From: Rugalucina vietnamica
Taxonomy: Eukaryota; Mollusca; Bivalvia; Lucinida; Lucinidae
Direction of reading: 5' to 3'
Assembly: GCA_964017185.1 (NCBI GenBank)
Contig: OZ024869.1
Span: 4,672,501-4,736,500, forward strand
DNA: 64,000 nucleotides
A program made the translations under genes and the position numbers. Below, one piece after another: positions 2,598-56,448 of this stretch (position 1 is the first letter of the stretch; each line of letters opens with the position of its first letter). The notes under the pieces were generated by a model. The model worked only from the letters and a program-made list of their open reading frames with translations. It ran no database searches and was not told the DNA's origin.

Positions 2598-2833
2598 CTA
2601 TAATTATCACCTCTGGTCGTTCCATTTTTTTTTTTTTTTAATTCAGTTCAGACAAGCACTGCCCTCCTATCAACTCTTGCTGGAAGATGTCACATGGAGT
2701 CGGGTTACATTGAGGTTAAAGGCCCCAGTAGCCAGACCAGGGCACCCAACTGTACTACAGCGTTTGTTGAAAGACAAGACCTATTCCTACCCACTCTAAG
2801 CGTGGGTGAAATTCTGCAGGTCAGTTAACTTAT

Positions 2834-3038
2834 ATGAACCGCATCATGGCATCATGAGAACAATGTGGTTTCTGAACAGATCCGACACAAACCAAGCTGT
2901 ACAAGCACAGGGGATGGCTAGAGTCTTGAATTTTAGATTTAGAAAGTAGAGGAATTGTACTATTCATCACTGCAAAGCTGATCTGCGCCTTGTTTTCGCA
3001 AATGCAAAATGTTGGTTTTCTCATGATGTAGCTCAATT
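2834..3038 (-). mobile_element. Hairpin MITE family 1, minus copy
   Basis: Reverse of the consensus, with TTTGTGTCGGA, TAGAGGAATTGTACTAT and GGTTTTCTCATGATG blocks. It lacks half of the inner palindrome. Confidence 0.6.
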
Positions 3039-3119
3039 ATTATATACTGAGCCCCGCCCATTGGGACCTAAAGAAATAAATGGGCTTCCTGTGCCTCCAG
3101 ACACAGCTTATACACTATT

Positions 3120-3345
3120 GACTGACCATCTGAGCATCTGAGCCTGCCCAGGAAAAGTGACCAGTTCAAGTCAACCCAGCCATAAATATGGGCCTTAATG
3201 GTTTACTTGGGTGGTTATATTTGAATCCTTTTTGGATGTCATAGCATCCTAATTTTGGGTAAATGTCATATTAAATGGAGGCAACGTTCCGACATGACCA
3301 TAGCTGTTGACTGGGACGCTAAGCATGCCCAAACATAAAGCCATG
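3120..3345. repeat. SINE-like repeat with CATGACCATAGCTGTTGACT core
   Basis: Contains GGTTATATTTGAATCC and CGACATGACCATAGCTG followed by GGGACGCTAAGC. The same core occurs at 10900-11065, 23705-23745 and 56310-56390. The core plus GGGACGTTAAAC recalls the conserved domain of mollusc SINEs; this identification is from memory. Confidence 0.45.
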
Positions 3346-8801: not shown

Positions 8802-8907
8802 TATGCAGCTGACTTACGACTTGGGCCTGGTGTATCCAAAAAGAAGAGGAGGTCAGTTGTGAAGGATGTTTTACACCTAGTTGGTCTGCATGATGTTCGG
8901 CACATAC
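8802..8907 (+). CDS. ABCG exon A: NBD segment before the signature motif
   Basis: The exon follows acceptor ttgttttacag and ends at donor gtaggt. It reads YAADLRLGPGVSKKKRR then VVKDVLHLVGLHDVRH, the classic ABCG block (FAA.LRLP....KE..V..VL..LGL..V..T). It starts in phase 0 and leaves one base. It is the most upstream exon I can find: nothing coding for Walker A is visible in 1-8801, so the upstream intron exceeds 8.8 kb. Confidence 0.85.
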
Positions 8908-11295
8908 GTAGGTAGCCCGGTTCTTACAACACTGTTAACCCCACAAGGGGTACTCCTATATTGGTGCAGTATAGGTACTTGCCGCGCTAAAGCCCTCCCC
9001 CTCCTCCCTTTTTCGTTCGTTCCAGACGACCAATCATTTTCGAAACAAAATGTTTTAGCTTAGAAGGCCCTTTTTATACAGAAAGTCGCTCATGTCCCTT
9101 CCCAACTTGAACACCAGAACGCTCCAAATTTTTCAGTTCTAAAAGCACCCCTTTTTCACTTCAGTCCGCGCTGAAAGCCCCCTTAGTTTTACACACACAC
9201 CGCGGCACATACATATCAGTTATATATGGGAGTAACCCATCACAGAGACTACTGCTGTTCCTTTGTTTATATGATATGTAATAAAATATAGAAACGCATT
9301 TATTTTATTTTATTTTATTTTTTAATTCAGTTTTACGTCCCTTTCAAGAGACGGGCCAATCAGTAGGTGGGGCGAAAACGGGAGAACCTCGAGAAAAACC
9401 ACCTGGCACACCCGCAAGCAGAACTTGGCTTGTCTCACATGTGGCCAGAGCGGGGCTCGAACCCACACCAGACACAGCGGTGAGATGATCGAGTGATTAA
9501 GAAACAGCGCTCTTAACCGCTCGGCCACGGGGGCCGCCGAAACGCATTTATAAATGAACTTTGGGGTACTGGGGTATTGGGCTACCGTGCTGTTCTCAAA
9601 GAACGACCTATATAATGTATATGTATATTAACATTAACGCTCTTGCATCTGGGACCATGGTAGGCTTTTAGTGTACATATATGTTTTACAGTTATCAGTT
9701 TTACGTATTTCAGAGGTCCTGGGCCCAGAATTACAATCATTCCTTAAGTTAAGGCCTCCTTAGCGGTTTAAGTTAAGTTTATACCTTAGCTAGGATTTTC
9801 CTTAAAGAGTGCATTTGTAATACACTTTTTGATCGTCCTTTAGTAAGGTGTAGTTTCCGTAAAAACTTACGGGACCGTTGCGGGAATAGTCGAAAACCTA
9901 ACCGGAGCAACCCGGAAATTTATAAATTTTATATCGCTTAATCGGCATGAGACACAATTACAATATTTTGATTATGAACATTGGTTTATTGTCCAACCCA
10001 CGTTAGACTCTGTGGTGCAGTGGTTAACACGCCCGCCTGCCAATTTCCACCCTGAAACTTGGGTTCGGAGTTCGATACCCACTGGTTTCATTTTTTTTCT
10101 TGTCATTTCTTTTTTTGTATTTTTGTTACTTTATTATCTTTTTACATTCTTTATCTTTTGTTTAACTTTTGTTTTCTTCTTTAAAATTTAGTAATAGTAA
10201 TTTTTCGAGCCGTACTTATGTCCTGCAGTGAAAATTCATCATTGCCACATGCATTCATATACACACATCCAAGAAGCTCATAGACTTATTTCGAAGACAG
10301 ACGCGGTGACGGGAATAATTCCAAAGAAACATGATTTTATCATAATAGTAGGGTCTACATAATGACGACTGCAAATACAATATTAAGGTTAGGTCCTTTG
10401 GGAAGCAGTGAAAACATTTGAACGGAGTAGTATGGTCTTTATTGTGCTATTTCGGATAATGAACCCTCGTCAGTGACGATTTATAAGCCAAAAACGAAAG
10501 CCAGACAAGGCTATAAAATTCGATATGTGCGATATTTTTTCTGTCTTTCTATTTTTCTTTCCTTCCTTTAAATATCTCCCAACCATCACTCACGTGTGAA
10601 TGCAGACAGGTTGGTGCAAAAAAGCTAGAAAATGTATTTTCTCAGATTTTTATTTTGCAACGGTGATTTTCAGAACGAACGCCCGGGGAGCGCGATTGCG
10701 TTGATTGCTGTACTTTGTGGCGAGAGGCTATATATTAAGAACCATTTCCCGCCATTTTGGTTTCTCAATCGGACATATTCATTACGGGACCCCGCCCATT
10801 TTGGCCGTGAGAAATAGATGAGCGGCTCGTACCTCCAGGTAAAGCTTATAGCTGACTAACTGACCTCCCGATGACTTGTTAATTGCTGAGTAGGTCTGTG
10901 CCTCTCCAGAAAACCATTCACACATGTAAAGCTTTAGTTGTTTGTTTGGGTGGTTTAATATAGTTTAAAGCACATCTCGCCTGACATGACATCCAAATGT
11001 CAGTGGGTAGAAATTCCATAAAACGGTAGCAACGTACCGACATTACCATATCCGTTGAGTGGGACGTAAAGTTATATATCAAATAATCAAACAAACGACA
11101 ATTACTCAACACATTACCGGTAAAGTTCCATGAAAGCATTGCTAATATCCCGACATGACTCAAAATTGTTGAATGAGTGGTCAAGTCGCATCGTACATGT
11201 ACCACAGGAGTCTTGATTCTTCGAGCTGTTTCGTTTAAAGATAAAGTGAAAAAGACTCTCACTCTTGTATGCGCAGACACAATCGTCTTCATTCA

Positions 11296-11339
<44 letters not shown>

Positions 11340-14300
11340 GGCGAAAAATGTGATATAATATGTTACGTTGCGTTGCTATGCTATTCTGCATAAACATATT
11401 ATAAAAAAAAAACTCCGTTTATGATGCTTGAACTGACCAATGTTTTGTCTAGCCTAAGTAAAATCTTAAGTTAAGGTAGCTATCGAGTAACCTTAAATAT
11501 TTAAGTATTTCCTTAAGTTAAGGTCTACCTTAAAGTAAGAAAATCGATTGTAATACACTTTTGTCGATTTTAAGGAAAATCTTAAGTTAAGTTCGACCTT
11601 AAGAGTTAAGGAAGCATTGTAATTCTGGGCCCTGGTTGCCAAGGCGAAATATCAGAAACTGCTGAGTATTGCATGTGCGTTGGTTCAAGATGAGATAGGA
11701 GTCTTGATTTTAGACGTAAGTACACGGGGTTGTGTTTCTTTGTATGTACTCTGAGGTTAGGCCGCAAAATATGTGTAGTAAAAATAGAAGGACCTAGATC
11801 TGATACTAATAATATATAGAATCCCATCCCAGACAGCGGCGGGCAAGAAATGACAATAAATGAAGACACCACATACCTTTTGACAGCAGATATGAAGAGC
11901 AAAATTACTAACTCTTTCCCATCAAGGTAGCCATACGAATAGCGTTGACCAAAACAAAACAATAATGCAAGTACAGTAGATAGGCATGTAGCTAAATATG
12001 TAACAGATGGAATAAAAACTGGTCTGAATCTTCGACTGTGTCAGTCACTCCTTTTTATATACTCAGAGGAAAAGGTTTAGTCAGTAACTTTGACAAGCCC
12101 TACAACTATTTCATACTAATGCTTGCCTTATCTGGCCCTCTTTGTTAATCATGCAGAGGCTAATATTACCAATTTCGATAAGAAACTCCATCAGTTCACT
12201 GTTGCATATTTCTTGACACAGTTATTTGCCTTTTTTGTGTATGTACCCTGGCAAAACCACGTGATTTTAAGAGTTTCTTGGAAATGTTAGGTTTTATTCA
12301 CAGATCTATTACTGGGAAATTTAATCCCAATACATCAATGTGTTTGAAGTTAAAAAGATTCGAAAACTCCCAATGGGATTTTCACTGACTAAACTTTTGC
12401 CTATGAGCATATTTATACCAAAAGGCACCGGGTGGTTGTCTTGACTGTAATCCTAGGCGCCCACAATCTCTATGAGTCATTTGTGTCTCTCTTATATTGA
12501 TAATCTGTATAGATAGCTATTGTCATTTGGGCTGTTCATGCTCTATGAAATATAACTGAAAGTATGGTAGACTTTCTTGGGTTTTGATGTTTCGTATATT
12601 TCCGTAATATATTCCCGCTATATAGTTATGAAATATTAAACGCGGAATAAACCTAATTTGCATATTATTTTCTTATTTAATTGTAAAGGGGAACAACTTT
12701 CTGGATGCAGTTTATTCCGTGACTCTCCGTAACGAGCATCAACGCCTTGGCTTAGAAAGTCTGCCCTAAAAAGTATATTCTGCTTGCAATATTTGACATA
12801 TTTAGTGTTTTTAACTTATTACCCATCACTGACGTGAACATTGATTAGGACCCGACAGCCGGACTTTCTCTCTCCGACGCACTCGACGTAATATCGACGT
12901 TATCAGAGGTTTCGAAATCTCGACGACTAGCAGTGGTGCTGTCAAGTTCATACCCAAATAGTTCATGGCTGACCTTGTGTCAGAAAGTGATGTTTGTATC
13001 GCATGATCAGGTGAGTGTTTTGCATTTTGCTAAGCGTGCTAGTATTTGAAATCTCAGTTAGATTCTATATTCTTGGATCATGTTTTGGGTGAAATTTTTA
13101 ACACTGATCAATGAAACTTTTCGAGAAACTTGCTGTATAGGGTATGTCTTGGCTTGGCTACCCAAAGAATATGAGCGCCGAGTGTGTTGTCCATGAATTT
13201 TAATCTGGTGAAGTCTGACTTTTAAGATATAAAAAGTATGTCTCCACCACCAATCAAACAATCGAAGTTCCATGTTTCATTTTGTTCTTATTTCATGTGT
13301 AAATGAGTGCATTTGTTATTATGTTTCATCATACTTACTACCTTTCTGTCAATTCCAGATTTTGTATCATGGAAGACTTGATTCACTGACAGAATTTCTG
13401 CTCAAAGTTGGTTCCCCTTGCCCACCATTTCTAAGCCCATCTGACTACCTGAGTAGGTATCCCACAACATAAATAAGCCGCAGCATGGGAAAACCAACAA
13501 TCTGTGAAGCTGATCAGCGCCTTTATTTTCGCTACACGGATATAGAGGATATTTACTTTTTTGAGGTGAATACCAAATATATTTCATCGAGTGAGTTGAA
13601 AACATCAAAATTTTCACGAGTGCGTAGCACGAGTGAAAATTTAGATGTTTTAAAGTCACGAGATGAAATATATTTGGTATTTACCGATAAAAAGTAAATT
13701 TTCTTTTTATTTTATACAATATACGGGCATTTTCCTATTCACAAAGCAGGCGGTGAAAATGCAAAAACCAAACATTTTTGAAAACACAAAATAATTTTGG
13801 TACCACATTGTTCCTAACGTTCTAACTAAGAAAATGAATACCCACACTTTATGTTTTCGTTCGTAAATAACGGAGTTAGGCATTTGAATTTCTGAAGTGA
13901 GGCACATTTAATGACGTCAAGTGAATGGAAACGTCAGAAGTAATCCAAACTCTAGAGTGAAAATATCGGCTGATATCAATCACTAGTGAAAATATCAATA
14001 TCAATTCTGCAGTGAAAATATCACTTTTATCCATTTTTGATATACATTAATTTCACTGCTAAGTATAAAATAAAGTACAATTCCTCTACCTTCTAAATTC
14101 AAAATTTCCCGCCTCTAACCATCTTCTGTGCCCGTACAGCCCGCTTTGTGTCGAACCTGATCAGAACCCAAATTGTTGGTTTTCTCACGCGCAGGCTCAA
14201 ATAGTACTGTTGCATATCCATCAACGACATGTATATTATACATGTAGTAACTAATGTTCACCAGTTAAGGGCTTTATAAATTAGATTAGATCAAACTTAT

Positions 14301-17300: not shown

Positions 17301-20300
17301 GTAAATTGTCACGTGATCGATCTCATAGCAACAGTCAAGCCATCAGGAAAACATGTCTATGAATTGTATACCCCCTTGAACCCCAAATATATATAGTAAA
17401 ATTGGGGACTACAGGGGTTTACCTATTATTCTTATATTTGATCTAAAACATAGATTGTTAGTACTCGTAAATTGGGAGTTACAGGGTTATGCCTATTTTT
17501 CTTATATTTGATCCAAAACATACATTCTGGGTACTCGATAGAACCGCCTCGGCGAGTCGGTTGTAACGTGTACCGACAATCAATGTTTTAGCAATTATAT
17601 GTTATAAATATTTTTTTTCGACGGAGTTTTTTCTTCAATTTTTACACCTGAAAAAAATCTCTGTATATTGCATGGGCAAGTTTTGGTAATGATATGCTCT
17701 GAGCCTTTGCATGTGAAAACCAACAATTTTGTTTCCGATCAGGTCCGATAAAAACCGACCTTTACAGTCACACAATCAGTCTAGAGGTTTAAATGTATAT
17801 CGGATTTAACAAGATTGTAGATTTGCCCATTATTGTTGATTTGCCCCCCCCCCCCCCCGGCCAAAAATAATATAATAAAATTTAATTAAACGAAGATGAC
17901 ACATTTCTGAAATATGACAAATTGCTACCAGATCTTCTCATTCATTATTTACCGGTGCTGTTTCGTAATTACCCGAACCTCACACGGAAGTGGAACGAGA
18001 TACCGAAGCGGAGCGGAGTGAAATTTACTTTCCTGATCTACTCACATGTCTGTGAAATTTGCGGCTCAAATGATTTTATCAGGACCTTTGTTGTTAAATG
18101 ATAATCCCTAGTTAGTGTTTATGCGTTTCACATTGAATTTAACATGCATCTGGGGGAGTGGGGGCCTTATATTTAGAGCTCAGGAGTCAAGATCGAGAAA
18201 TAATGGGTTCGTTACTTACCTTCGCCGTGCTGTACCCATACACAAGACACTTTAATCTCCTCCATGGAACTGCGTCGCATCAAGGAATCAGTGGTTTCGT
18301 CCCGACATGACTGAAAAACCTGTTGACTTGGACGAAAACCCATAGCCAAATCAAAATAACTCATGAAACAAGAATGCCCCTCCGTAAAAGTATACGTATA
18401 TTCAACCCCTCCATCTTAGGAGACGACGTAATTGATTTATATCAACATATTTTCAAAAGTGTGGGGCTTTAAACAAAAATATTAATTTAGCGTACACAAT
18501 AATACGTAGTCTTAATAGCCATAACCTCTTCACAGGTGATTGCAAAATACCGAGAAAAAATCTGGCCAAAATAAGGACGTAGTCTGATTTCAACCCCACA
18601 ATCTTCACGGGCTGATTTATACTGGCGCATATTTGCGTGCTGCACGAGTCATGACTGCGACATAATTTTTATACTAGAACGTGCAGTGTGATATAACCGT
18701 TTGTATGCGCTATATCGTTTGGATAAAAAATAGCAGAGAATGGGTTTTTAAACGACATTTTTGTCGTAAAAATGCCAGTACCGTCTCAAAAATGGTCGTA
18801 TTCTTTTCCCACCCGCTCATTATCGAACTATAGATTGGACTGCGTGCTCATAAGCGAAAGTAGCTGGACTATTTCGTTTTCCATTTAGCCTTTGAAAACT
18901 ATAATCATTTCCCCAACCCGTTGCATCCTTCAAATTTTATTTGCCGTTTTTAAAAAGCGTGACACGGCTGTCGTTGACTCCTGATACGGCTAGCGGTTGT
19001 TTATTGATCAGTACGATACGGCTGTCGATAGTATTTTGAGATAGCATATTGCCCATTGAAATCAAATAGTTTCTGAATAGTTTTCATTTGCAACTGATAA
19101 AAGGACTGTATAGACTGTCTATTCTCTTGCTTCAAACCAAGCAACTTTACATATAAACACCACACACGCAAGAAAACTGTATCATTTATTAAATTCGAAG
19201 TTTCACCATTTATTAAGCGTGGTAGGACAGCTTTCAGTGACACCCGTGTTCATTACTTGCTCCCATCTGCAGTGGCTCCTCACAGCCCCTCTGAAACTAG
19301 TGCCTCAGATGACGACTCGACATCGGTTAAAGCGCTATCGTCCCCAAAAATGTCAAAATTAAAATTTATGTGTCTACTGAACTGTCGTATCAGCTTGAAT
19401 GACACATGCAGTATTTTACAGCTATAACTACGAGTATGTTAAATAGCACGTGCTACTACCGATTAAACAGGCGGTCCCTACTTTATATGTAAAGCATGTG
19501 CTACTACCGATTAAACAGGCTGTCCCTACTTTATATGTAAAGTTGCTTAAAACGACCACAAGAGAAAGGAAATTTATGTCTAATTCACTCTGTTCAAACG
19601 ACATAAATTATATATAGCTCGAATTTGACCTCAGGTGCGTCAAAAGATCGACGAGTCTACTTAGTAGCACGTGGAAAGATATTCAGACTGTAACAGTACA
19701 AATACTTACTGTGAGGGCAACTGGAGTGTAACAGAAAACTTGCGCTCATTTCCACGGCTATCCCCCGCCCGCCCCGGGGATGGGGGACGGGCGTGGTTAC
19801 AAATGACTAGTGCATTACACAAAGGATCAATCAGTCACTTTCGCCACAGTTTGTCTTCTTTTGTGACGCTCATCAAAGTTTAAGTTATATACACTACACT
19901 TTCTTATTTAGATAATGCATGCGAAAATGATTGAGAAAGTAAGGCAATCGGTCACTACATATATACGACGTTCAATATTCATAACTTGGTTTGATCAGGG
20001 CGGCGGTGTGCCATGTAAATATCTAACCGTTCGTGTAGATACAACCCACTGGTTTATCGTTAGAATTATGAACAGAGTGAAGCAGATGTTGTTTCATTAA
20101 TATTTCTGAAATCTAGGAGGCCTTAAACTTAGTTTTACCCGTATATTTGGATCTACCACCTGTTCTAAATTGTCGACATCCGTAACGAGTTTAACCGACA
20201 GCCGTATCACACATATTTACAACTGATCGACAGCAGTAACACCAAAAGTTAAACGCCCCTTCAAAACCTTTCTGCTTTGGATTTTTTTAAAACTGTAAAA

Positions 20301-22870
20301 GGTTTTATCTTTGCAGTTATGTTTTCCACGTTGTTCAATAAATGGTCAGAAATGAGAGATACTGATTTTTACAGTATTTGCATATTATGTGATTTTTGCT
20401 ATTTTACGACTAAACACATGTTTGTATGAAAACTAGCGACCCAAAAGCCCGTACAAACATATTGCACGATAGACAAATATCTAACAACACATTCTAGCAG
20501 AAAAATATAAATAATACCTTCAGATTCGATTGGATCCACTTTTACGTGTGTACTGGTTGTGTAACGACAGCCGTAGTACTCGGACGGAAACCGGAATACT
20601 CGGACGACAGCAATATATGCAGTAACGTCTCGGACGACAGCACAGGTGGTATCAATTGAATCACCCCCGTGTTATATGGGGTTCTGTTCTAGATGGAAGT
20701 TTCCAACCCAAGGGATGACCGTGCTGAGCGGAACCGAGGCTCTGCCGAGGTTCCGCTCAGCACGGTCATCCCGAGGGTTGGAAACTTCCATCTAGAACAG
20801 AACACCATATTAGATTCTTTTTCTTGCACAACAACCACCAAAATCTGGTTTATTTCAAGGTTTTGCGTATTTTTTAGCCTGGGTGAGAACACCTGGGTGA
20901 GATGCAATTTTATCACCCAGGCAAAAAGTGTGGCAATTTCTGTCTGGTGTGCAAGAAAGAAATATCTCTGACAGGCACACAAATGGATATGCTTGTCTGG
21001 TGGGTGAGAATTGATTAGGATACTACATGAGTGGCAATCAATGCTGGTTTTCTTGATGGGGACGATAAAGATATTTGAGATGTTTGCCATTCCTTTTTAT
21101 CAGTGGAGGTTACCGCGAAGAGAGGCCTTAAAGACCAAGACCTGCAGACTAGAATGGCACAGCTAACAAAGACACCCTGGTATGTGATTCAGAAGGCGAT
21201 AACATTCAAACAGAATCGCTGTTTGAAGCACTGTAGTAGCTACTCATCAGGAAAACATGTCTGTGAAATGCTTAACCCCTTAAACCCCCACTTTTATATA
21301 GCAAAACTGGGGTATGCAGGGGTATGTCTATTTTTCTTATTTTTGCTACAAAACATAGATTGTGGGTACTCGTTAGAACCGCCTCGCTGAGACGGTTCTA
21401 ACGTGTACCCACAATCTATGTTTTGAGCAAAATTAAGAAAAGTATCAAACATTTTCTTCTAAAAAGTTTTAATTTTTACGACATAAAATCTTTGTATATT
21501 GCATGGGCAAGTTTTCGTAATGTGCATTTTTCAACACGACTGATGCAGCTTGGTCCAGAATAAAGATGATGGATATTAATTAAAATTTATAATCGTGAAT
21601 TTATAGATATGAATGTCCTGCAAAACAAAAATAAAAAGGTAATTGCATTTTATAATCAAAGTGTGGAGATTGTTAATTGTTCTTGTGCTAGTTTAAGTAT
21701 TTTTAAATCATAAGTATAAAAACTACTGCAATTGACGCGCTTTGATATCAGACGAAGACGGAATCAAAGACTCTAGCTACAGTCGTTGACATCCTTTTTT
21801 GTACCCCTTGTGCAGGTCAAGTGCACAATTCTTTTTATTATATTATCTATGTAACGAACATCATGTGTAAATCATGTGACTGTTTATATATTTCCAGGGA
21901 AGAAACTGGCTCAGTGTGGGTAAAAAACAACAGCAAAGATGTACAGAGAATAGAAGTTGGAAATGTAGAAACTGTAATTCAAAATGGCAGACAGAAAGGT
22001 GGGAATGCATACTATTTTCATATGTAAAATAAAATAAGGATATTCAAATGAGTATCACTCGATCTTATTTGGGTTAAATTATAAAGCTCGTTGTTGAAAT
22101 GTGAAAAAAGCTTGTTGTTGAATTTTGAAAAAAAAAAAAGAAAAAAAGATAAATCTAAAATGGTAAGTCCAATTTCAACCTTGAGTCTGTTCGATTCCAG
22201 TGTTTTTCGATGACGAATGGAGTACTGATTTGGTTGAGTCCACTGTCATTATTAGGGGCATCAGGAGTGATTTTGAATTTTTATTCTATTTTTTCGATGA
22301 AATTCCTCTAAGCAAACAGAATGCGGTGTCTGTGGTTATACTGTTTGCCTATGTCCCATAAAAAAGGACGCCAAAAGAATTTACTTAATTGAAATTTCTG
22401 AAGTTGTTATTCAACACAGTGTACCATTCTCGACAAGCCTATGACTCAATTCCCTCATATCTTTTAACGGGACTGGGTTCAATTCTCGGCTACGTGTTCT
22501 TTCCATTCGCTGTAGAGTCTGAATCTTTCATCGTATGTTCTGTGTACATGTAGGCTATGCCATGTCCCAACAGAAACGTCCTCATTTTTAAATTTGGTAA
22601 GTTTGTCAGAATTTTGTGCTATGTACTGGACCAGGTCCCGAGATAAAACATATTCCCATCCTGCGGCATACGAGACATAGTGGTCACATATGTATTCCTT
22701 AGGCTCGATCCATTTTCAAATTTCAAACAATAGTTTAAACATATTTTATTGTCATCTCAAAGACAAAGGGGTTGGGCTCCAAGTTCTGACAACATTAGTT
22801 ACAGCCCGCCCCCTACAAATTAAATATACAATGACATTGACAATTTGACTAATTTCAAATAATGAATAAT

Positions 22871-22920
<50 letters not shown>

Positions 22921-25900
22921 GAGAGAGAGAGACAGAAAATACAAAATATAAGGTAAATCCCTGTACGCCCCCTATATAGTGGGTTTTTATGGGGGTATAT
23001 ATTGCATGAATATGTTATGATGTGTTTTTTTTTTTTCATTTTAAACAGTCGACTCAATAATCGCTGTTGAAGCAGAGACCCTTCTTGGGCACCAGTCACA
23101 CAACCCAACCAAGACAGCACCATCCCTGTGGTATCAGACATGCATACTCACCCAGAGAAATTTTCATAACGCACGCCGACGGATTTTATTCCCGGTCAGG
23201 TAAAATATGGAAGTTTTCTTTTTCAATCCCCCTTGGCCGAGCGGTTGAGAGCGCTGTTTCTTAATCACTCGATCATCTCACCGCTGTGTCTGGTGTGGGT
23301 TCGAGCCCCGCACTGGCCATATGTGAGCCAAGCCAAGTTCTGCTTGCGGGTGTGCCAGGTGGTTTTTCTCAGGGTTCTCCCGTTTTCGTTCCACCTACCG
23401 ATTGGCCCGTTTCATATGAGCCGAAATAATCTTGAAAGGGACGTAAAACTGAATAAAAATCTTTGTTTATTATTGTTGTTTAATACATGTAGCATGTATA
23501 GTAGACGCACGTCTTCAGCAAGAAGATACCAAATGCTAAGTTTACCACGTGAGATCAACCGGCAAGATCTAAATGAAACGGAGAGTTTGTCCGGACATAA
23601 TTGGGAAGCCTCCGTGGTGCAGTGGTTATGTCACTCGCCTTGTTAACCAGGGGTCGCAGGTTCTCCAGTCCGTCAGATGGAACTTTAAACAGAGGTCCCG
23701 TCTCCATATGACCTTAGCTGTTGGTGGGACGTTAAACCAAATCAACCAACCAACCGACATAATTGTTGACTGGGACTTCAAACCTCAATACAAACAAACA
23801 AAATGTATTTACTATATATACTAGAGGACTTTGAAAACGCCTCTCTATTAAGTATATACAAGTGCTTTATTATTCGATAAGTGACCATTTCACTTATTCG
23901 ACTCCGTATCGCATGTATCGCACAGCTCGCGCAGTTTATTGTTGTAAGCACTCAGATCGACCGTTTCTCTGGTGAGCAGGCCTGCAACAATAACACGACG
24001 GTCATCAGCCGATAAAGCATTCAAAAGTGACTCATATTTTTCAGTGAACGTTTCAAGATCGGTACCATTGTCAGCATCATTACCACCTACTAACAGAATA
24101 ATTGTTTTGCAGTTTTCTAGGTTGAACTCAGAAAGCTTTATTTTGATAGTGTCAATAGAAACTCGTTAAATTGCCAGCGTCGCCATGATCTCGAAATTTC
24201 TAAAATTGAAACATTGTGGACTGAAGTCAAAATCACAAACTCCAAACCATTTTTGATTTGTACTTTATACCGTCCACCAACTGCAGGGTGGATAGACTTG
24301 CTAGAAAATGAACTGTCAGTAGCACAAACAACTGGTCTGGGGATGATAATTATGGGTGATGTAAATTATTGATTTCCAGGCTTGCTCAAATAATAAGTGG
24401 CTGAACTTGGTGCAGCTTTTTGATCTAACCCAGTTGGTCACTAATCCGACACGCATAACTCAATCTTCGTCCACACTTATTGACCATGTTTATACGTCGA
24501 ATCCTGAAAGTATCTCTGAATGTTTCCACATGCGACATATTTTCGAATACCTAAGATTACAGCTAATGAAGTAAGTGAGTTCATAAAAGGCCTGAATTCA
24601 GCTAAAGCTACCGGTCTCGATGGTATTGGGCCAAGAATTTTACAACTTGCGAACACTGTTCTGTCTCCATCAATAGCAGCCATGATCAATAAAAGTAATG
24701 AGACAGCCAAAACGAGCAGCTCGTATTATCCTGAAAGCTGACTTTGACACTCCATTGTTAGAGATGTTTAATGAATTAGGGTGGACAACAATCACGACCC
24801 GTCACAACTACAGTAAAGCAGTTTTTACTTACAGGGCCCTAAATAATCTGACACCGGAATATATTTCAAACTTGTTGAAGCCTGTGTCTGAAACCCACTC
24901 TCGAAATTTGCGGTCAGCGACAAACGGCTCCTTGGCAGTGCCTAGATCTAAGACTTCCCTCTTTGGTAGATCATTTTCTGCAACTGCACTGAACTGCACC
25001 AAGACTATGGAATTCAATGCCAAAGGAAATCACTAATGCATCATCTCTAAGTAATTTCAAACAATTGGCAAAAACATATTTTAAAGACTAATGAGCATGA
25101 AAAGAAAGATCTTGTGAATTGAATAAACGGGTCGATTAAAGTGATAAATCTGCAATGTATCCACTCCGTGCATTTTTGGGCCCCCATCTGTTCCTGGCAT
25201 TCCTTGTTGAGTTCTGGGAAAGATGGGAGGTGGTTCGTGGAGCAGCTTAACGTGAATCTCCGGTTCCAGTTCCGCGGTGAGCTAGCTCTCGAGATAGCTC
25301 GCGGGTTCGTTCCTTTGGTCCTTCAATGTATGGAGTGTATGCTTTGCAATACAGCAATGCAATTTTAAAATTTATTTGCTGACATTAGCAATTCTTAGAA
25401 CCTTTTATCAACAGAATTTTGATTTCTAATGCGATTTTATCTGATTTCATGATTTAATGGAAATTTTATATAGATCTAATGTTATAATCTCAAAAATGTG
25501 AACGATCTGAGTATTATTTTTAGACATTTTATACGCTCTAAATTTTTTAACAATTTTGCTGGTCAGGTTTTGTATCTTAGACTGTTTAATAACTATAAAA
25601 TACATTTTATTGCTCTATATGCATGTAATATATTATGTATTTTAGTTCATATGTGTATATATGTATATATGTTTTAAGGAGGGCCGCGAGGTAGAATGGC
25701 TAATGTAGCTAAGAGCGTTACCCTCATAAAATATTGTATAAATAAAATAAATAAATAAATAAAATAAATATACATCGGTTATAATTTTGCTTAAAAACTG
25801 GTTAAAATTAATCTGAAGTATAAAATACACATAATAGTGTGCTAAGAGCGTTACCCTCATAAAATATTGTATAAATAAAATAAATAAATAAATAAAATAA

Positions 25901-28900
25901 ATATACATCGGTTATAATTTTGCTTAAAAACTGGTTAAAATTAATCTGAAGTATAAAATACACATAATAGTGTGTGACATGATAAACAATATTTATTCAT
26001 AAAAAATGTTTGCTAAAATGTTTGCTAATAGTCTACTGTTTTCTTGATACGTAACGTCTTTGTTGTTTTGCCAAAGAAAACCTTAGGACGGTTACAAAAA
26101 AGGCTCTTCGTGAAAACAAATCATCTCTAATGACAGCGTACAACCTTAAGCACAAGAAAAAGCAAAATAAAAATGTAGACTCGTTCATTGCCGTTTAAGG
26201 AGCTGGCATTTTTCGTTGACGTCAAGCGTAAATTGATCAAAACATAAAAATACACATACAGCGCAAAATTTATGGTAATTTTTACACACGTCCGTGCCTA
26301 TCTAATATGTTTGAAAACTTTTGAATTTGTTTCATTTTACACGCAAAAATTAATGTTTTCTTCATAAACGTTAAAGTGACGTAATTACCACAATTTTAAT
26401 GCAATTGAAAGACAACTAACAGCATTTGCTTGGCTTGTGGTGTTTCTTTCCAGAAATCATGTTGGACCTGATGAATATTTTTCGTCCTCATAGTTTGTTT
26501 TTGTTGAATTTTTGGTAACGATTGAAATCATACTGTATGACGTAAATCACTGACGTTGACGTTTCGGTCAATGAATGAAAATTAAGCAAACTGGTTGTAT
26601 TTTTCTGTTCAAAATTATTTTTGTCGAAATACATGTATGTATTTTTTAAGAAATGATCATCATTGCGGACAATTTATAGTAAGGCGTTTTCAAAGTCCTT
26701 TAGTATAATATAAATCACTACTCATTCAAATATTTAGTATACTGTATATGTAAGTTCATAAAGTATAGATTAAAACCAAATGAAAGTTATATTCTCAAAG
26801 ACGGAATTTATTGTAAATTAAAGCCATTTGGTTGCCACCTCTCTATCATGTCTATGCAACTGCATGTTCACTATTCCCGGATGATTTTACTTTGTCTGTT
26901 ACAGTGTTATTCAGAATCTGTATATTTTGGTGTTGTGTGTCTTGGTCTGGTGGCGCCCCGAAAGATCTGAACAGTCAGTTACTGATAGAATGGGACTGGT
27001 AAGGGTAAACTGAATTCCGCCTTGAGAAAACAGGTTTTCTGGGGTTTCAACCAGGTCCGACACGAACCCGACTGTAAGTTTCAGGAAAAGCCTAGAAGCT
27101 TGAACGACGGTGCATTTTTCTGTGTAGAAAAAAAAAACAAAAAAAAAACAAAAAAAAAAACAGAGGCGTCTTTTTTCGAATAGGCAAAAAGCCGGTTATC
27201 TCATGTTGCAGCTCATTTGCACCATGTCCGGCGGTTATAAAGCTTTTTTCATGATCAACTCAGCTGAGCATGAAAATTGAACTGTTCATGACGAAATACC
27301 CCAAATAATTTGAATCTGTCATTTAGTAACTTTTCGACTGTGTCCATCGTTAAAAAGCGTACTTTTTTCAATATTAGAGAAACACGGCGTTGTTAAACTT
27401 GGCCAAGAATACAAGACGTATCCGATTTTATACATTATGGTCAACACGTTCCTACAGTGTACACCTGATTAACCCAGTGTCCTCCACACGTCTGACCTGT
27501 GTCTCCACTACATGCATAATGACATTCTGACATATCTACCATGCCATACTGGTAGTAGTTGACATTAGCAGGACCACAGAAACACTGATAGCCTGCTTGT
27601 ACAGCGGCATACCCATACCCTATCCCGACACAGTACTGTATACATTTTCCTGGAGTCATTGCTGACTCTGGACCCGAAATTGGGAAAGCCCTCACGCTAT
27701 TGTCTTGGTAGCAGCCTACTAGATGATCGTCCGAGCTTGCACATCCGAGAGGTTGTTCCCATTCTCCGTTAGCCTGACATGTCATAACGCTAGATCCACA
27801 CACGTAACCGTTGGGACAATACACACTGACGGTACCACCGACGTCGGTTGACGTTGGGGTCCCGAGTGTGTAACCCGCAAAAGATGGTTCACCGCAACCC
27901 GGAATAATCTTCACAACCACGACGAATTCATCACCGCTATTTGCCAAAACGCACCCCATTAGCGGCCCACTGCCCCCTCCAACGCCGTAGTATTTGCATA
28001 CTCTGCTCACACTATTGATGGTGATGATATAACAGCTGTCCGACTCTTTACATTGTACCACACAATGAATATTACTTCGTGAGTTTGTATCTGTCCATAA
28101 CAGAGAATCTTGCGGGCATGACCCCCGCTGCTTCTCGAACATTTCGTGTGTAATTTGTCCGCGCGAAATTCCAAGGAGAACCAGGCCTACCACTGTCATA
28201 ATGCATGTTCGTTTAATTTTATTTTTGAGCATTTCAGACATACCATGTCCTACATACAACTGAACCACTTTCTTGAACTGCATTGAATCAATGTCAGAAA
28301 TGAAGTGTCCTTGTATACTAAGAATGAATGAATCAAACGCGTGAAAGGACAATTAAAACTAATTTAAACTGATTTTAACTTTTATTTGCAATGTATTTGT
28401 TTTCCAAAAGATACAAGGTCAAAAGAATTGATCTTGATGAAAGGAACCCAACTTGTACTAATTGTTTTCTGTTTCAAAGTCAGATATATAGAATAAAGCA
28501 GCACTTATTGTCTATTATATTCCCGGAAATGCGTCACGGAGGCAATATGACAGTGTGAATGCGATGTCCGGTTCCATTTAGATGTCCATGATTTTAATCG
28601 ATTAAAATTTTACCTATCACAAGGAAAAAATTGCGCCCTATTTACCAGACTTTAAAAATATATAAGAAAGAATATATATATAACAATGACGACGAATTAT
28701 CTCATTTGAATTAGCTTCTATACCTGTATGAAAAACTAGCAATGGTCATAAATGGACAAGGGTCTTGTTGCAACATCACTGCTAATGCATATATGGACAC
28801 AATCATAAGCAGAAACATGTCCTCAATGTTAAAAATGATACAATTACATGTATGTTAAAAACGTTAGATTTCCGAATGTGGCAAAAGCTTACTACAATTA

Positions 28901-29909
28901 ATCATTTACCAGAACACTTGCACAAATAACCTTTAAGGCAAGGAATATGTGATCCGCGACGCGAGAAACCCGATCTTCGGGGTTTCCGACCAGGTCCGAC
29001 ACAAAACGACCTGTGCAGTCTCAGAAAAAGGCTAGAAGCTTGAAATTTCTGATTTAGAAAAGTAGAGGAATTGTACTATCCATGTACGCTGATCAGCTTC
29101 GCAGTTACTGCAGTTACTGTGAAGCTGATCTGTGCCTTTGTTTTCGCATAGGCAAAAATCCGGTTTTCTCACGATGCGGTTCGTGTAATAAATTAACTGT
29201 TTGTGTTTTAGTTCTTTTTTACGACAGTCCAGTGGGCATTCTTTTCTCTACTAGATGCCATATTAACATGTAAGTATCTTTTCTGTGTTATATTTTGCAT
29301 TACGAAAACATACCCATTCAATCTATAGAGATTTGTTTAAGCTGTAAATATTGAATGCAACGTTCAGGAAAAGGCGCACAATCAGAAAAAGATTCCCACT
29401 CCAAAAACCGAGGTGGGAAAAAACTAAAATAACAATCACGTACTTATACCATGAAAACATATCAGAAGCCGAATGAGCAGCTATTTTCCCAATAGGTAGC
29501 CACTCAATTACCTAAACTTAACTAAAAATATGAAAACATACATAAGGCACCAACAGCACAAAAATATTAAACAACAAGACATAAAACAAAAATTTCATTG
29601 GAAAAAAATGATATTTTTGCTTCAAACGTTGATTGTGATGTGGTTCTAACGAGTACAAAATAAGAAAAATATGTGCCCCTGTACATCCCAGTTTTACTAT
29701 GTAGGATTCAAGGGGTATACTTTACATCGTCATGCTATCCTGGTAGAAATATGTGGCCAATTTATTACTTTTTTCGACTTCTAACATTTAGATATTTAGA
29801 ATTCTATATTAGACTAATGATAAGATAGGATAAGTAGATATGATATTTCATTTGAATACGGGCAAGATTCAACAAGAAAACGAGCTTTTGACCGTCGATC
29901 GATCGACTC

Positions 29910-29955
<46 letters not shown>

Positions 29956-32900
29956 AGAGGATACTATAACAAAATAAAGCTCTATATAACTTACATTTTC
30001 ATTTCTTTCAGTCCCAAAAGAATTAAAAGTATACAATCAGGAAAGAAGATGCAATTTGTACCATGTATCAGCTCTGTGTATTAGCAAGTCTATCAGCGAA
30101 CTGCCTTTGTCCCTCGTACAACCGTTTGTTTATATGAGTGTGATTTACTGGGTGGCTAATCTTAGTAGTGTACATGCGTATCTCTGGTCACTTCTGGTAC
30201 TAACCTTTGACGTCTATGCAGCCCAGGTAGGTTTGCTATGTTTTTCAAGGAAGATCCTGAACACAAAGAAGTTTCTGAGAGAAAAGGCAAAAGATAAATA
30301 TCAGGACATACTAGTTTCATATAGGTGTTTTTCTTTTGCTCCGGAGTTAGTAGGTTATTCGGCGCCCAGGGATCTCCATCGTCGGGCAGCTTACTCAATC
30401 TGTGAGTCCTGGGTTTTTATTCATCAGGATGTTTATCTTGATTTATATGTTTGTTCTTGATGATTCATTGACTAGTTAGAGATTCACCACGAGGACCGAA
30501 GAACTAACTAAATGTTATGAACCACTGCAGAAGCTGAGGGTGAGGTTAGGCGCCTGTAAAACCGGTTTAAGCCCGCCAGTAACTTTGTGTTACTGATCGT
30601 TCAAAGGCGATACTTCTGTGGTGGTTCTTTTTGTTTTATGTCTTGGTGTTTATAACTGTTTTGTGCTTGTGTGTTTTCATAGTTTTAGTTAAGGTAACTG
30701 AGTGGCTACCTATTGGGAAAATAGCTGCTCATTCGGCTTACGATATGTTTCATGGTATAAGTACCTGATTGTTAGTTTGGTTTTTTTTCCACCTCGGTTT
30801 TTGGAGTGGGAATCTTTTTCTGATTGCGCCTTTTCCTGATCTTTGCCTACTTATACCTTTTCATATGAAATGATCACGAGTGTAATATTTTCTTTATCAC
30901 ATGACCTTTAAAATAAGTAAGTAGGTAAGTAAATTCTTTATTTTACGAGGGTGGCCCATTTGGTTATATCCAATCTTCCATGGGGCCCTCAAATACATAT
31001 AAATCAACAACAACATTAACATATTATGTACATATTATGTATTATAAGAATTTATTGCCTTTAAATTGGACATAAATTTACTGAAACACATTATCTTCAA
31101 GGACGTCTTCATGCCGTTACGAATTCCTTCAAACATTAAATTTATTATATGCTAAGTCATAAAAATAGAAATCTATTCAACAAATTTGAAAATATGCAAT
31201 AAAAAGAATAGTAATCATCGAATGAAACATGACGTAATCTGAAAACGTCGTATAAGTTTCGAGAATATCTTAGATATGCAGTCTATTGAGCAACTTGAAA
31301 CATACACCTGTTTAGTTCAATGAAAATGTGTTTAATATTATAACGACTAAAGGTTTCAGAGGGAGTAAAAAGAACATTTTCGCCGCCGTGTGTTCTTTTG
31401 AATAGTTAAAATTATGAGCCAGTCAATGATATCATGTCAGGTGGCGCAGGTGATGGTAAAACTAGTGTACGTTTAAATACGTAATTTGAAAGGGAGAATT
31501 ATAACATATTTATATCATATACATATGCTGTAATTGTCAATATATGTTATTTAGACAGTCTAGAATCATTTTATTATTAGTTTAATTGTTTCCTTCTAGA
31601 GTATTGGATTGTTTGTTGGTGTTGCGCTGAATCCTCCCTGGACGATTAGTGTTGTGTCGTTAGGGCTGTTATCTATGATGCTATGGGGTACACTAACTTT
31701 GTATTTGTATTGATAATTGTTGTTTAAAAATATTAGAATATATAGAGGATATTCAAGTTTTTGGAGTGAATATGAGTTTTATTTCATTGAGTGAAGTGAA
31801 AATTTTTTATATTTCATGAGTGCCGAAGGCACGAATGAAATATATAATTCACTGAAATAAAAGTCATATTCACGACAAAAACTTGAATTTTCTTTTTATT
31901 ATATTGCATGTAGTCATTGTAACGTTGCGCGCTAAAGCATATGACGTCAAAATCTTAAATGACGTCATTACGTCACGTCATTACGTCGCTATTGTGTGTG
32001 AACGTTCATTGCGTCAACAATAGCATAGATTATAAAATTTAGTTATGTACAGTGAGGACGCAGCCAGCGTGCAAGCGGTAATTGTATTTTATTTTGAAAC
32101 CTTACTCGACGCAAAATAATCCGAAACAAAATGGAGACCACTTTTTGGTCGAAATTTCGATCAAAATGACACGCTTATTGCTGTGCTTAAAACAATAGCG
32201 GCTATACGGTACAGCTAGATCCGCCTTGTCCAGGATTTCATGTTACCGTGTAACACTGAGACGCCACATGACAAACTTTTTTCAACGAAAACGACACAAA
32301 ACAATATTGCCTGTCACAGCTTTCCCCTGAATTTCCCATTTCACAGGGTGCCATTTATTTTAGAACAAAAAATTGTTCACACTCGGATCTTGTATTTGAC
32401 CGTACGTAAGTCATCAAGATAGATTTGACCGTGTTGAGGCTAATTCTGTGTATTGGAGAAAATCGTTTTACGTCACACCACATGTGTAAAGTCGGCGGTC
32501 GTTTTTGAAGTATTTCTGTGGTGTAAACAGTCACATCATGACACGTTCTTCTCTGTAAATCAAAATGTGTGATACTTTAAATGTTGTCAACTTTCTCCAT
32601 TTTGTGGAAAGGATTTAATTAATCAGTTTGGTGAAATTTCATCATGTAATTCTGGATTTACCAAACCATCATTCCATGGACATGAGGATGGGTGGGGGAA
32701 GGTCATGTAATACTCTGAATACTGCTACCTTCCTGAGATAATGTATGGGGTGTACACCTGGCAGATTAGACATGTGAGACTCTAGCACTGCTCGTAAGTA
32801 CCCACAAATATGTTTATAACAACATAGCTCTATCCACAATCGTGACAATGGTCTCTAAAAGATCTTTGCGGAAACCTAAGTGCACCAGTCATTTGTAACC

Positions 32901-33361: not shown

Positions 33362-36300
33362 GTTGTTGTTTTATGGCTTTTTTAACATATTAACAAGTGT
33401 GTATTAACCATTATCAGTCTATTCTACATGTGGGTATGCAGTGTTAGTATGTTAGTACTCTGCTGTTACATTAGAAAACATGCCCTTGTAACATACATTT
33501 TCTTATGTTGTTAAGATTGAAATTTTCACCTGTAAATTTTTAATATTTGTCTTATTTTTGCTCAAAACAGAGATTGTGGGTGCACAAAGAACCACCACGG
33601 CGAGGCGGTTCTAACGAGTACCCACAATGGAGCTTTGCTTTGGAGCAAAAATAAGAAAAATACTAGATATACCCCACCAAAGTTTTATTACCGTATATAA
33701 AAGTGGGGTTTGAAGGGATATACTTTACACAGACATGTTATCCTGATGTCAATGCCGATTTATATAAAAAATTTACTTCTGGAAACAGGAAATATTAGAG
33801 AATTTTGGGGAACATCAATTTTCCCTGTCTCTTTGGACAGTATTTGTGGGGTCAATGTCTTCCAACAGGGTTCAAACAAACAGTTTTTGTGGGCTAGGGA
33901 AAAATATATGCGTTACCATACGCACCAGTCATTTGTATCCCCAGCCCCTATGTGACCGGGGATAGGGGCACAGCGGGCTTATGTGCCGGGTAATAACCTC
34001 CGATGAGTGTCGAATATATGACAGGATACAGTCACATTTAATTCAAATGAACTAGTAGTTGTATCTTTCGTATTTTACTACTTTTCTAGTCTGGCTTTTA
34101 TGCCCTGCTTTTTCCTGGCACCATAGTGACTGTGGATACAAATGGCTGGTGAATTACTACATACCATGCAACTTTATTAAACATGATTTCAATTATCTTT
34201 CAGAGGTCTGAGACATGCAAGGAATGTGATGTGATCCCTTGACATGGTCAACAACATGATGTGAATACCCAGGAAAATTCTGCACTGCGAAATAAACAAT
34301 AGAAACAACTGTTAAAGTAGAGAAAAAGGCTAACATGGCCTTGGAATTTATACCACACGTTTATATATATAGTAAAACTGGAGTGTGCATGGGTGTACCT
34401 ATTTAAGCTATTTTTCTTATTTTTGATCCAAAGGTTTTTGTCTATGGGTACTTGTTAGACCCACCTCACCAAGACCATTCTAACATGTAGTACCCACAAT
34501 ATACATGTAGGTTACAGCAAAAACAACCGGCTTCTTTCAATTAAAATCTTCATGGGTGTGTTTTCGTATTGTATCATGGTTTAATTTAGACTTGAAGTTT
34601 TGGATTTTGGAAGAAGAGGAATTGTACTATCCCTGTAGTGGAAACAAAGCCACTGATCACTGCACAGCTGATCTGCGCCTTTGTTTTCACCTAGGCTAAA
34701 ATGGAATCTCTCATGACGCAGCTCATATATGAACTCAAGATAAACAAGGCCTGTAAAAAAGTGGTTTTGTTTGTTTGGGGTAACATCTTGGAAAACTCAA
34801 GGTAGGGTTACTATAAAGGTGCATATTTATTTATTAATTTTATTTTATTCTCTTATTATTTTTTCTGTTGAAAGTCATTAATTTACCATAAATACTGTTG
34901 TTTTCTTCAATTTCTTAGAAATATTGAGATAAAAAAATTAGGATTCACCAAAAAATCTAGATTTAGGGTCAGGTTACCCTAAACACTCCCTTTTTTAGCT
35001 CACCTGAGCCGAAGGCTCACAGGTGAGCTTAAAGTATACCCATGCTCTGGCGTCCGTCTGTCGTCTGTCCGTCCGTCCGTCAGTTGTCCGTCGTTCACAA
35101 TTTCAAAGATCTTCTCCTCTGAAACCGCTTGGCCAATCAAAGCCAAACTTCATATGGAGCATCCTTAGGAAGGGGGAACGAAAGTTTATATAAATGGTCC
35201 AGGTCACATGACCAAGATGGCCGCCATGGCTATAAATAGCAAAAACCTTTAAAAATCTTCTCCAGAACCAGTGGGCCGATTTCCACGAAACTTGGTATGT
35301 AGCATCGGGGACGCGGGCCCATCATAGTTTATATAAATCATGACCCTAGGATGACCTTGACCTATTTTATGGCAAGGTCAACTTGGGTCTCCAATGCATT
35401 TAAATGGGAAAAAATGGTAAAATACTATTTAATGGGTAAAACTTACTGGAAATAGGCAAATGGACAAAAGATTAATGTTAATGGAAAATTTTAGCCCCTG
35501 CGGGGTTGTCTGCCCCTGCCCCGGGGCTATATACATGCATATTTTCATAATAATGAAACATCTTCTCCCCTGAAACCACTTGGCCAATCAAAGCCAAACT
35601 TCATATGGAGCATCCTTGGGAAGGGGGAAAGAAAGTTTATATAAATAGTCAAGGTCACATGACCAAGATGGCCACCATGGCTATAAATAGAAAAAAAAAA
35701 CCTTTAAAAATCTTCTTCTCCAGAACCAGAAGGCCAATGATTTTGAAACTTGGTGTGAAGCATCAGTGACTGGAGCTCTACAAAGTTTATATAAATCATG
35801 ACCCTGGGATGACCTTGACCTATTTTACGGCAAGGTCAACATAGGTCGCTCATGCATTTGAATGGGGAAAAGTGTTAAAATGTCATTTGTAGGGAAAAAC
35901 TTGCAGGAAATGGGCAAATGGACTTAAGATTGATGATTCTGAAAAAATTTGGACCCCAGGGGTCTGTCTGCCCCCACCCTGTGGCAATATACATGTATAT
36001 TACAGTGATACTCAAAGAGCTTCTTCTCTGACACTGCTTGGCCAATCAAAGCCAAACTTTATGAGGAGCATTGTTAGGAAGTGGGATTGAAAGTATATAT
36101 AAATGGTCAAGGTCACATGACCAAGATGGCTGCCATGGCTATAAATAGCAAAAATCTTTTTCTCCAGAACCAGAAGGCCTATGATTTTGAAACTTGGCAT
36201 GAAGCATCAGGCAAAGGGACATGTACAAAGTCTATATAAATCGTGACCCTTGGATGACCTTGACCTACTTTACGGCAAGGTCAACTTAGGTCGCCCATGC

Positions 36301-56040: not shown

Positions 56041-56390
56041 CTGTCCTTCTTGGCTTTGTTGTGTGGTTATATTTGAAGCACGTTTAGTTTAGGATGTCAG
56101 GGCGTCCTAACTTGGGCCCCCCTTTTTGATTCAGTTTAACGTCCCTTTCATGATTATTTCAGCTCATATGAGACGCGCCAATCAGTAGGTGGGACGAAAA
56201 CTGGAGAACCCCGAGAAAAACAAAACCACCTGACACGCTCGCAAGCAGAACTTGGTTTGTCTCACATGGCCAGAGCGGGGTTCGAACCCACACTAGACAC
56301 AGCGGTGAGAACTTTGGGCACAAGTCCCATAAAATGGGGGCAAAGTCCTGACATGACCATAGCTGTGGACTAGAACGTTAAGCATCAATT
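56041..56390. repeat. SINE-like repeat split by a truncated SINE
   Basis: GGTTATATTTGAAGCACG..GGGCGTCCTAACTTGGGC at the left and ACATGACCATAGCTGTGGAC at the right match the repeat at 3120. In between (about 56113-56308, minus) is a 5'-truncated tRNA-type SINE. AACTTGGGC and AACTTTGGGC flank it. Confidence 0.6.
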
Positions 56391-56448
56391 CAAACAAACT
56401 GCATTGCAAATGAAAGACTGTGGTATTGTGGCGACAAGCACGCACGCA

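What the first reader, a model, noticed from the sequence alone, without database searches (positions are those of the whole stretch)
9714..11715. Transposon inserted inside a coding exon of the transporter, at the ABC signature
Removing the 1.9-kb element and one CTG copy leaves an 89-nt exon whose phase and sequence fit both neighbours exactly. All other exons are open with good splice sites. This suggests a recent or polymorphic knock-out of an ABCG gene, or a transposon tolerated in some unseen way.
Basis: partly seen in the sequence, partly recalled or inferred. Interest (0 to 1): 0.75.

Follow-up and report, generated by a model that had tools for sequence, protein, structure and literature searches.

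The report
Transposon splits an unusual mollusc gene
A jumping DNA element has landed inside a coding segment of an ABCG-type membrane transporter gene in what looks like a mollusc, and probably damages that copy; the gene belongs to a mollusc family whose ATP-driven engine had already lost key parts.

Summary
Confirmed: 9714-9721 plus 11635-11715 form one 89-nt exon split by a 1,910-bp inverted-repeat element (9722-11631) flanked by a CTG duplication. With the element and one CTG left out, phase fits both neighbours, and the 29 codons align with relatives from clams, mussels, scallops, oysters and abalones (one extra residue here). No transposase was found in it. Duplication and repeat ends fit the CWG-type NuwaI group of the PIF/Harbinger (PHIS) superfamily.

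Correction: the insertion sits where the ABC signature should be, but the gene has none. Of 15 family members found, 0 have LSGG[E/Q]; 6 of 6 outgroup proteins do. Between family clades the membrane domain is much better conserved than the nucleotide-binding domain, the reverse of normal ABCG proteins. This copy also lacks the Walker A lysine.

Eleven other exons are open and about as conserved as in relatives, so the insertion is most likely recent or polymorphic, giving a truncated or null allele. In-frame escapes exist on paper: the native exon-3 donor to a cryptic acceptor at 11690, or skipping exons 3+4. N-terminal and linker exons were not found. No empty site, haplotype or RNA could be examined: the genome search did not complete 12 times.

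The parts
9714..9721 (+). exon 4, 5' piece (AGGTCCTG), includes left CTG target-site copy 9719-9721
   Evidence: acceptor tttcag|AG; phase fits exon 3
9722..11631 (+). 1,910-bp inverted-repeat DNA element, no transposase found; CWG-type (NuwaI-like) PIF/Harbinger relative, probably non-autonomous
   Evidence: TIR + CTG duplication; longest stop-to-stop ORF inside it 124 aa; 10 of its ORFs gave no Pfam match above cut-off; group features from PMC4482050 section 7
9722..9747 (+). left terminal inverted repeat
   Evidence: 25/27 identical to the right arm
11606..11631 (-). right terminal inverted repeat
10754..11069 (+). internal copy of a repeat also present at 3009-3322 (part also at 56315-56399)
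   Evidence: local alignment
11632..11634 (+). right CTG target-site copy
11635..11715 (+). exon 4, 3' piece (VAKAKYQKLLSIACALVQDEIGVLILD)
   Evidence: donor GAC|gtaagt; aligned to 15 family members; best of 2,847 window ORFs for the exon-4 profile, E 0.022
2647..2819 (+). exon 2 (this report's numbering; start may be 2652): end of Walker A region, GK[S/T] replaced by TST
   Evidence: tblastn with P0001-P0004 and P0006
8802..8907 (+). exon 3, 106 nt, ends in phase 1
   Evidence: only from the alignment of the joined peptide and splice signals; no tblastn hit of its own and not among the top 4 for its own profile
12849..13010 (+). exon 5, 162 nt, DDPTAGLS... (Walker B acidic pair, D-loop, H-loop position)
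13359..13456 (+). exon 6, end of nucleotide-binding domain
   Evidence: tblastn with P0006; top of 2,847 ORFs for its profile, E 0.0029
23069..23199 (+). exon 8 (5' border not fixed), start of membrane domain
   Evidence: tblastn
26905..26998 (+). exon 9
   Evidence: tblastn, acceptor
29212..29269 (+). exon 10
   Evidence: tblastn
30012..30226 (+). exon 11, Pfam ABC2_membrane 1.7e-11
31600..31687 (+). exon 12
   Evidence: tblastn
46614..46728 (+). exon 13
   Evidence: tblastn
47016..47217 (+). exon 14 with stop codon TAG
   Evidence: tblastn, sequence, acceptor

Best explanation
A PIF/Harbinger-superfamily DNA element of the CWG-target (NuwaI-like) kind, probably non-autonomous, inserted by cut-and-paste into a CTG inside exon 4 of a molluscan ABCG-type half-transporter gene and duplicated the CTG (shown by anatomy; superfamily inferred from duplication and repeat ends). 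Reading into it meets a stop after 13 element codons, and no in-frame, stop-free acceptor lies in the element itself, so this copy most likely makes a truncated or null product (inferred). The rest of the located gene is open and about as conserved as its relatives, so the insertion is recent on the scale of mollusc divergence and may segregate with an intact allele (inferred). The host gene belongs to a molluscan family in which the ABC signature and the H-loop histidine are absent and the nucleotide-binding domain has evolved fast while the membrane domain is tightly conserved (shown on the members found). It therefore probably works either with a catalytically competent ABCG partner or without classical ATP hydrolysis (inferred).
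For: Element anatomy; no comparable inverted repeat in 300 of 300 shuffles. CWG duplication and GGG start match NuwaI (PMC4482050 section 7). Exon reconstruction: phase, and alignment to relatives with one extra residue; mussel model P0004 has extra residues exactly at the exon 3/4 border and scallop model P0013 resumes exactly at exon 4, which supports that border. Readthrough QVLGPELQSFLKLRPP*. Gene integrity; per-exon identity 0.71-1.06 of the between-clade mean, 11 of 15 members used. Signature absent in 15 of 15 family members, present in 6 of 6 outgroup proteins. Conservation: window vs Ruditapes NBD 0.33, TMD 0.64; urchin vs spider 0.51 and 0.37. Fold of relative P0003 is ABCG.
Against: No empty site, second haplotype or RNA seen: the own-genome search did not complete 12 times. 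Cryptic acceptors inside exon 4 could rescue the frame: 11690 and 11714 pair with the native exon-3 donor and score -1.7 and -1.6, above the real exon-5 acceptor at -3.9. The element contains a diverged repeat copy; if that nested after this insertion, the insertion is older than I claim. Linker and N-terminal exons were not found, so other lesions cannot be excluded. Exon 3 is not recognised by its own profile. Exons 4 and 5 have the lowest ratios (0.77, 0.71), though Ruditapes is about as low there.
Confidence: 0.7

Rival explanations
1. The insertion is fixed but tolerated by splicing: the native exon-3 donor (8907) joins a cryptic acceptor at 11690, removing the element and 63 nt (21 codons) of exon 4 in frame; or exons 3 and 4 (106+89 = 195 nt) are skipped together; the protein loses part of an already degenerate nucleotide-binding domain and keeps the membrane domain.
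For: 8907-11690 gives ...HDVRHI-H-EIGVLILDDPTAG in frame without stop; 11699, 11702 and 11714 also pair with 8907. 11690 and 11714 score -1.7 and -1.6 on a crude matrix, above the real exon-5 acceptor at -3.9. Exon 2 joined to exon 5 is open. Relatives' gene models also lack NBD exons: P0013 the exon 2+3 region, P0004 and P0016 exon 5. The NBD is weakly constrained between clades.
Against: No RNA seen. All 8 in-frame, stop-free acceptors listed score below every real acceptor of the gene that was scored except the exon-5 one. Skipping exon 4 alone breaks the frame. Exon 3 is not more diverged than its neighbours (ratio 0.95), as it might be if long skipped. Relatives' models may be annotation errors.
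Confidence: 0.2
2. The locus is an old pseudogene; the transposon is one of several lesions.
For: Walker A lysine lost here though kept in 12 of 12 relatives with the region; N-terminal and linker exons not found; long window branch in the NBD (1.32).
Against: No stop or frameshift in 11 other exons; membrane exons 0.83-1.06 as conserved as between other clades; Ruditapes has an equally long NBD branch (1.29) with an annotated gene model.
Confidence: 0.07
3. Assembly artefact: a transposon copy from elsewhere was joined into this exon.
For: Bivalve genomes can be highly heterozygous and partly hemizygous (PMC7653742, passages seen), which makes assembly hard.
Against: A precise 3-bp duplication and perfect terminal repeats at both ends are what transposition leaves, not misjoining.
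Confidence: 0.03

Closest known systems
NuwaI group of the PHIS (PIF/Harbinger-ISL2EU-Spy) DNA transposon superfamily
   Same: CWG target duplication, terminal repeats usually starting GGG, repeat length within 12-61 bp, recorded in animals including one mollusc (PMC4482050 section 7)
   Different: no transposase or Myb/SANT match found; 1.9 kb against ~4.5 kb for autonomous candidates; contains another repeat
ABCG5/ABCG8 heterodimer (sterol transporter)
   Same: best PDB sequence match of the NBD is ABCG8 (E 9.2e-19); ABCG5 has a degenerate signature and ABCG8 a degenerate Walker A (PMC7756502 passages)
   Different: here the signature segment is shortened and unrecognisable, the H-loop motif is lost, and between clades the membrane domain is more conserved than the NBD
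Canonical ABCG half-transporters of sea urchin, spider, shark and plant (P0006, P0017-P0021)
   Same: same domain order and family (for P0006, P0017, P0018; for all six)
   Different: all six keep LSGGE or ISGGE

Membership tests
NuwaI (CWG-type PHIS) transposon | 3-bp CWG target-site duplication | tested here: met
   CTG at 9719-9721 and 11632-11634
NuwaI (CWG-type PHIS) transposon | terminal inverted repeats 12-61 bp, usually starting GGG | tested here: met
   GG(G)CCCAGAATTACAAT 16-17 bp perfect, 25/27 overall; whether the first G belongs to the repeat or the duplication is ambiguous
NuwaI (CWG-type PHIS) transposon | DDE transposase and Myb/SANT ORFs (autonomous copies) | tested here: not met
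   longest ORF inside the element 124 aa; 10 of its ORFs against Pfam: 9 no match, 1 match below cut-off to an unrelated family; so at most a non-autonomous relative
NuwaI (CWG-type PHIS) transposon | other genomic copies with empty sites | not tested
   own-genome search unanswered 12 times; no other copy of the ends in the window
ABCG half-transporter | NBD before membrane domain, ABC_tran and ABC2_membrane | tested here: met
   Pfam PF00005 5.1e-6 and PF01061 1.7e-11; PDB ABCG matches; fold of relative P0003
Catalytic ABC transporter | LSGGQ/E signature | tested here: not met
   VLVAKAKYQKL in its place; 0 of 15 relatives have it
Catalytic ABC transporter | Walker A GxxGxGK[ST] | tested here: not met
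   exon 2 reads TSTALLS; the codon at the lysine position ends in C, so a junction there cannot encode Lys (sequence); 12 of 12 relatives with the region keep it
Catalytic ABC transporter | H-loop histidine | tested here: not met
   SSSYPNS in the window; absent from 13 of 13 relatives whose models include exon 5

The most novel reading that the evidence does not exclude
A mollusc-wide family of ABCG proteins whose ATP-binding half has lost its catalytic motifs works through its conserved membrane half, as the inert partner of an active ABCG or as an ATP-independent lipid or sterol channel or sensor. NBD exons are being eroded by point change, exon loss and, here, transposon insertion, with the gene still producing a membrane-domain protein.
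Probability: 0.3. Interest if true: 0.65.

Novelty: new member of a known kind. Interest (0 to 1): 0.42.

Why it matters
A transposon breaking an exon is an ordinary event. The host gene is the better story: an ABCG family without a signature motif and with reversed domain conservation would let one ask directly whether an ABC membrane domain can be kept by selection after its ATPase has decayed. The insertion gives a natural disrupted allele to look for in populations.

Tried and rejected
Rejected: (1) the element as a tidy spliced intron. No in-frame, stop-free acceptor lies in the element; the 8 listed all lie inside the exon. At first I overlooked that four of these pair with the native exon-3 donor; found on re-check, and for that reason I lowered the main confidence from 0.75 to 0.70 and raised the tolerance rival from 0.15 to 0.20. 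(2) A tRNA or Rfam RNA inside the element: ARAGORN found none in the window; the best sub-threshold Rfam match in 9700-11660 was SNORA22 at 26.2 bits against a gathering score of 80. A- and B-box-like words near 10005-10090 are my own recall, not a call. (3) ORFs near 19635 and at 20253-20426 as linker or membrane exons: the second had no Pfam match, neither was matched by the relatives, and the linker profile found nothing (best E 1.1). (4) Other copies of the element's ends in the window: none. (5) Literature on a molluscan signature-less ABCG family: searches showed none among the rows listed (2 to 10 each, titles and abstract starts); only open-licence PMC papers are held. Species not identified: the tree puts the window beside venerid clams or abalones with weak support (75/60).
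Full report
What is there. Exon 4 (my numbering) of an ABCG-like gene on the + strand is interrupted by a 1,910-bp element. The left piece is 9714-9721 (AGGTCCTG after tttcag), the element 9722-11631, the second CTG 11632-11634, and the right piece 11635-11715, ending at GAC|gtaagt. The terminal repeats are 16 bp perfect (17 counting the shared G/C) and 25/27 overall. Perfect inverted repeats of 16 bp or more, over 200 bp apart and not low-complexity, appear in 0 of 300 dinucleotide shuffles of the 3.1-kb region.

Is the exon real? Exon 3 (8802-8907, 106 nt) ends in phase 1; the rebuilt exon 4 supplies 2 + 87 nt; exon 5 (12849-13010) starts in phase 0. The peptide VLVAKAKYQKLLSIACALVQDEIGVLILD aligns with VQVVTTAVKKKLSIACEMLIDPKVIVID of Mytilus edulis and the others with one extra residue before the Walker B strand. 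The exon 3/4 border shows in two relatives' gene models: P0004 carries extra residues exactly there, and P0013 resumes there. As an independent control I built profiles of single exons from the relatives and searched 2,847 six-frame ORFs of the window: the right-hand piece of exon 4 came first (E 0.022; next 0.19), exon 6 came first (E 0.0029), but exon 3 was not among the top 4, so exon 3 rests on the joined alignment and its splice signals.

The gene. A PDB sequence search puts the joined NBD nearest ABCG8 (E 9.2e-19; 50 sequences at E 0.001 or better). Pfam finds ABC_tran (5.1e-6) and, in exon 11, ABC2_membrane (1.7e-11). Protein searches found 6 relatives at E 0.001, 17 at 1e-30 with an alignment and 19 at 1e-60 with an abalone query; in each only about 8,000 candidates sharing most words were scored. 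The family as found has 15 members: Ruditapes, two Mytilus, Argopecten, Pecten, Ylistrum, Mizuhopecten, Saccostrea, Ostrea, two Crassostrea, two Haliotis, Mercenaria and P0002, whose source is unnamed; an oyster fragment, P0022, is not counted. Local tblastn with P0001-P0006 located exons 2, 5, 6 and 8-14, up to the stop at 47217, but not exons 3 and 4 by themselves. Eleven exons besides exon 4 are open with GT-AG borders in compatible phases where both borders are fixed; three donors (8907, 13456, 31687) and the exon-5 acceptor score poorly on a crude matrix. The ~111-residue linker and the N-terminal exon(s) were not found; the latter may lie before the window.

The signature was already lost. 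A motif scan finds an LSGG[E/Q]-type signature in 0 of 15 family members and 6 of 6 outgroup proteins (sea urchin, two spiders, shark, two rubber-tree proteins). The segment is both replaced and shortened. The H-loop motif is missing from 13 of 13 members whose models include exon 5; the one regex hit, in P0015, is at its N-terminus. Walker A is intact in 12 of 12 members with the region, while the window reads TST where they read GK[S/T]. The acidic pair after Walker B is DE in 8 members, DD in 5 and missing in 2 models; the window has DD.

Reversed constraint. Window against Ruditapes: NBD 68/203, membrane domain 180/280. Mytilus edulis against C. gigas: 0.48 and 0.71. Urchin against the spider Argiope: 0.51 and 0.37. 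Full-length members of different clades mostly give NBD/TMD identity ratios of 0.40-0.70. Results that do not show it: close pairs are near 1 (oysters 0.86-0.90, two abalones 0.98, two Mytilus 1.01), and family against outgroup is about 0.7-1.2. A review states that ABCG NBDs are normally more conserved than membrane domains (PMC7756502, passages seen). On one topology the window's terminal branch is 0.44 for the membrane domain and 1.32 for the NBD; Ruditapes 0.27 and 1.29; the abalones (ratios 0.77, 1.31) and Ylistrum (0.96) do not show the excess. A model of Mytilus P0003 still has a confident NBD (most blocks pLDDT 85-94), and its best structural matches are ABCG25, ABCG1, ABCG16 and ABCG2. 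In that relative the domain is kept as a fold; the window's own protein was not modelled.

Age of the insertion. For each of 12 exons I compared the window's mean identity to six family clades (11 of 15 members) with the clades' own between-clade identity: ratios run from 0.71 (exon 5) and 0.77 (exon 4) to 1.06 (exon 12). Ruditapes is about as low on exons 4 and 5. There is no sign of long decay, so the insertion looks recent. Against this, the element contains a copy of a repeat found at 3009-3322; if that copy nested after insertion, the insertion is older. Other genomic copies would decide, but the own-genome search did not complete.

Consequence. Reading into the element gives QVLGPELQSFLKLRPP*. 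Skipping exon 4 alone breaks the frame. Two kinds of escape keep it: the native exon-3 donor to a cryptic acceptor in the right-hand piece (11690 removes 63 nt of exon 4, 11714 removes 87; crude scores -1.7 and -1.6 against -3.9 for the real exon-5 acceptor), or skipping exons 3 and 4 together, 195 nt. A 9715-11644 splice would lose only 15 nt but needs a 2-nt exon and a donor scoring -5.0. I judge a truncated or null allele most likely and splicing tolerance possible.

What the element is. A study of the PHIS superfamily defines NuwaI by CWG duplications, with repeats of 12-61 bp usually starting GGG, in animals including one mollusc (PMC4482050; passages, and section 7). This element fits; its longest ORF is 124 aa, and 10 of its ORFs gave no Pfam match above cut-off. 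It is best filed as a probable non-autonomous relative; without a transposase or other copies that stays provisional. In the Mediterranean mussel 25% of genes show presence-absence variation, often in hemizygous regions (PMC7653742, passages), which makes a segregating disrupted allele plausible if this is a bivalve.

Verdict. The unexpected part is the host: a molluscan ABCG family without a signature motif and with reversed domain conservation, for which seven literature searches showed no description among the rows listed.

Noticed in passing
P0004, P0016, P0019 (relatives), exon-5 equivalent: Gene models from a mussel, a clam and a shark isoform all lack the same in-frame exon of about 54 codons (D-loop/H-loop), which hints at alternative splicing or a shared annotation problem.
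   Followed up: partly
61320-63983: 464-bp tandem satellite, 5.8 copies, 94% alike.
   Followed up: no
25708-25974: Two 100% identical 133-bp tandem copies inside an intron of the gene, so a very young duplication.
   Followed up: no
9320-9533: Another repeat, 87% like 23228-23459 on the other strand, lies about 180 nt before the split exon.
   Followed up: no
24121-25033: Reverse-transcriptase-like ORF fragments of a LINE-type element inside an intron (identity is my reading, not a search).
   Followed up: no
35103-36369 and 57805-58701: Further tandem arrays of 458-bp (2.8 copies) and 191-bp (4.7 copies) units.
   Followed up: no
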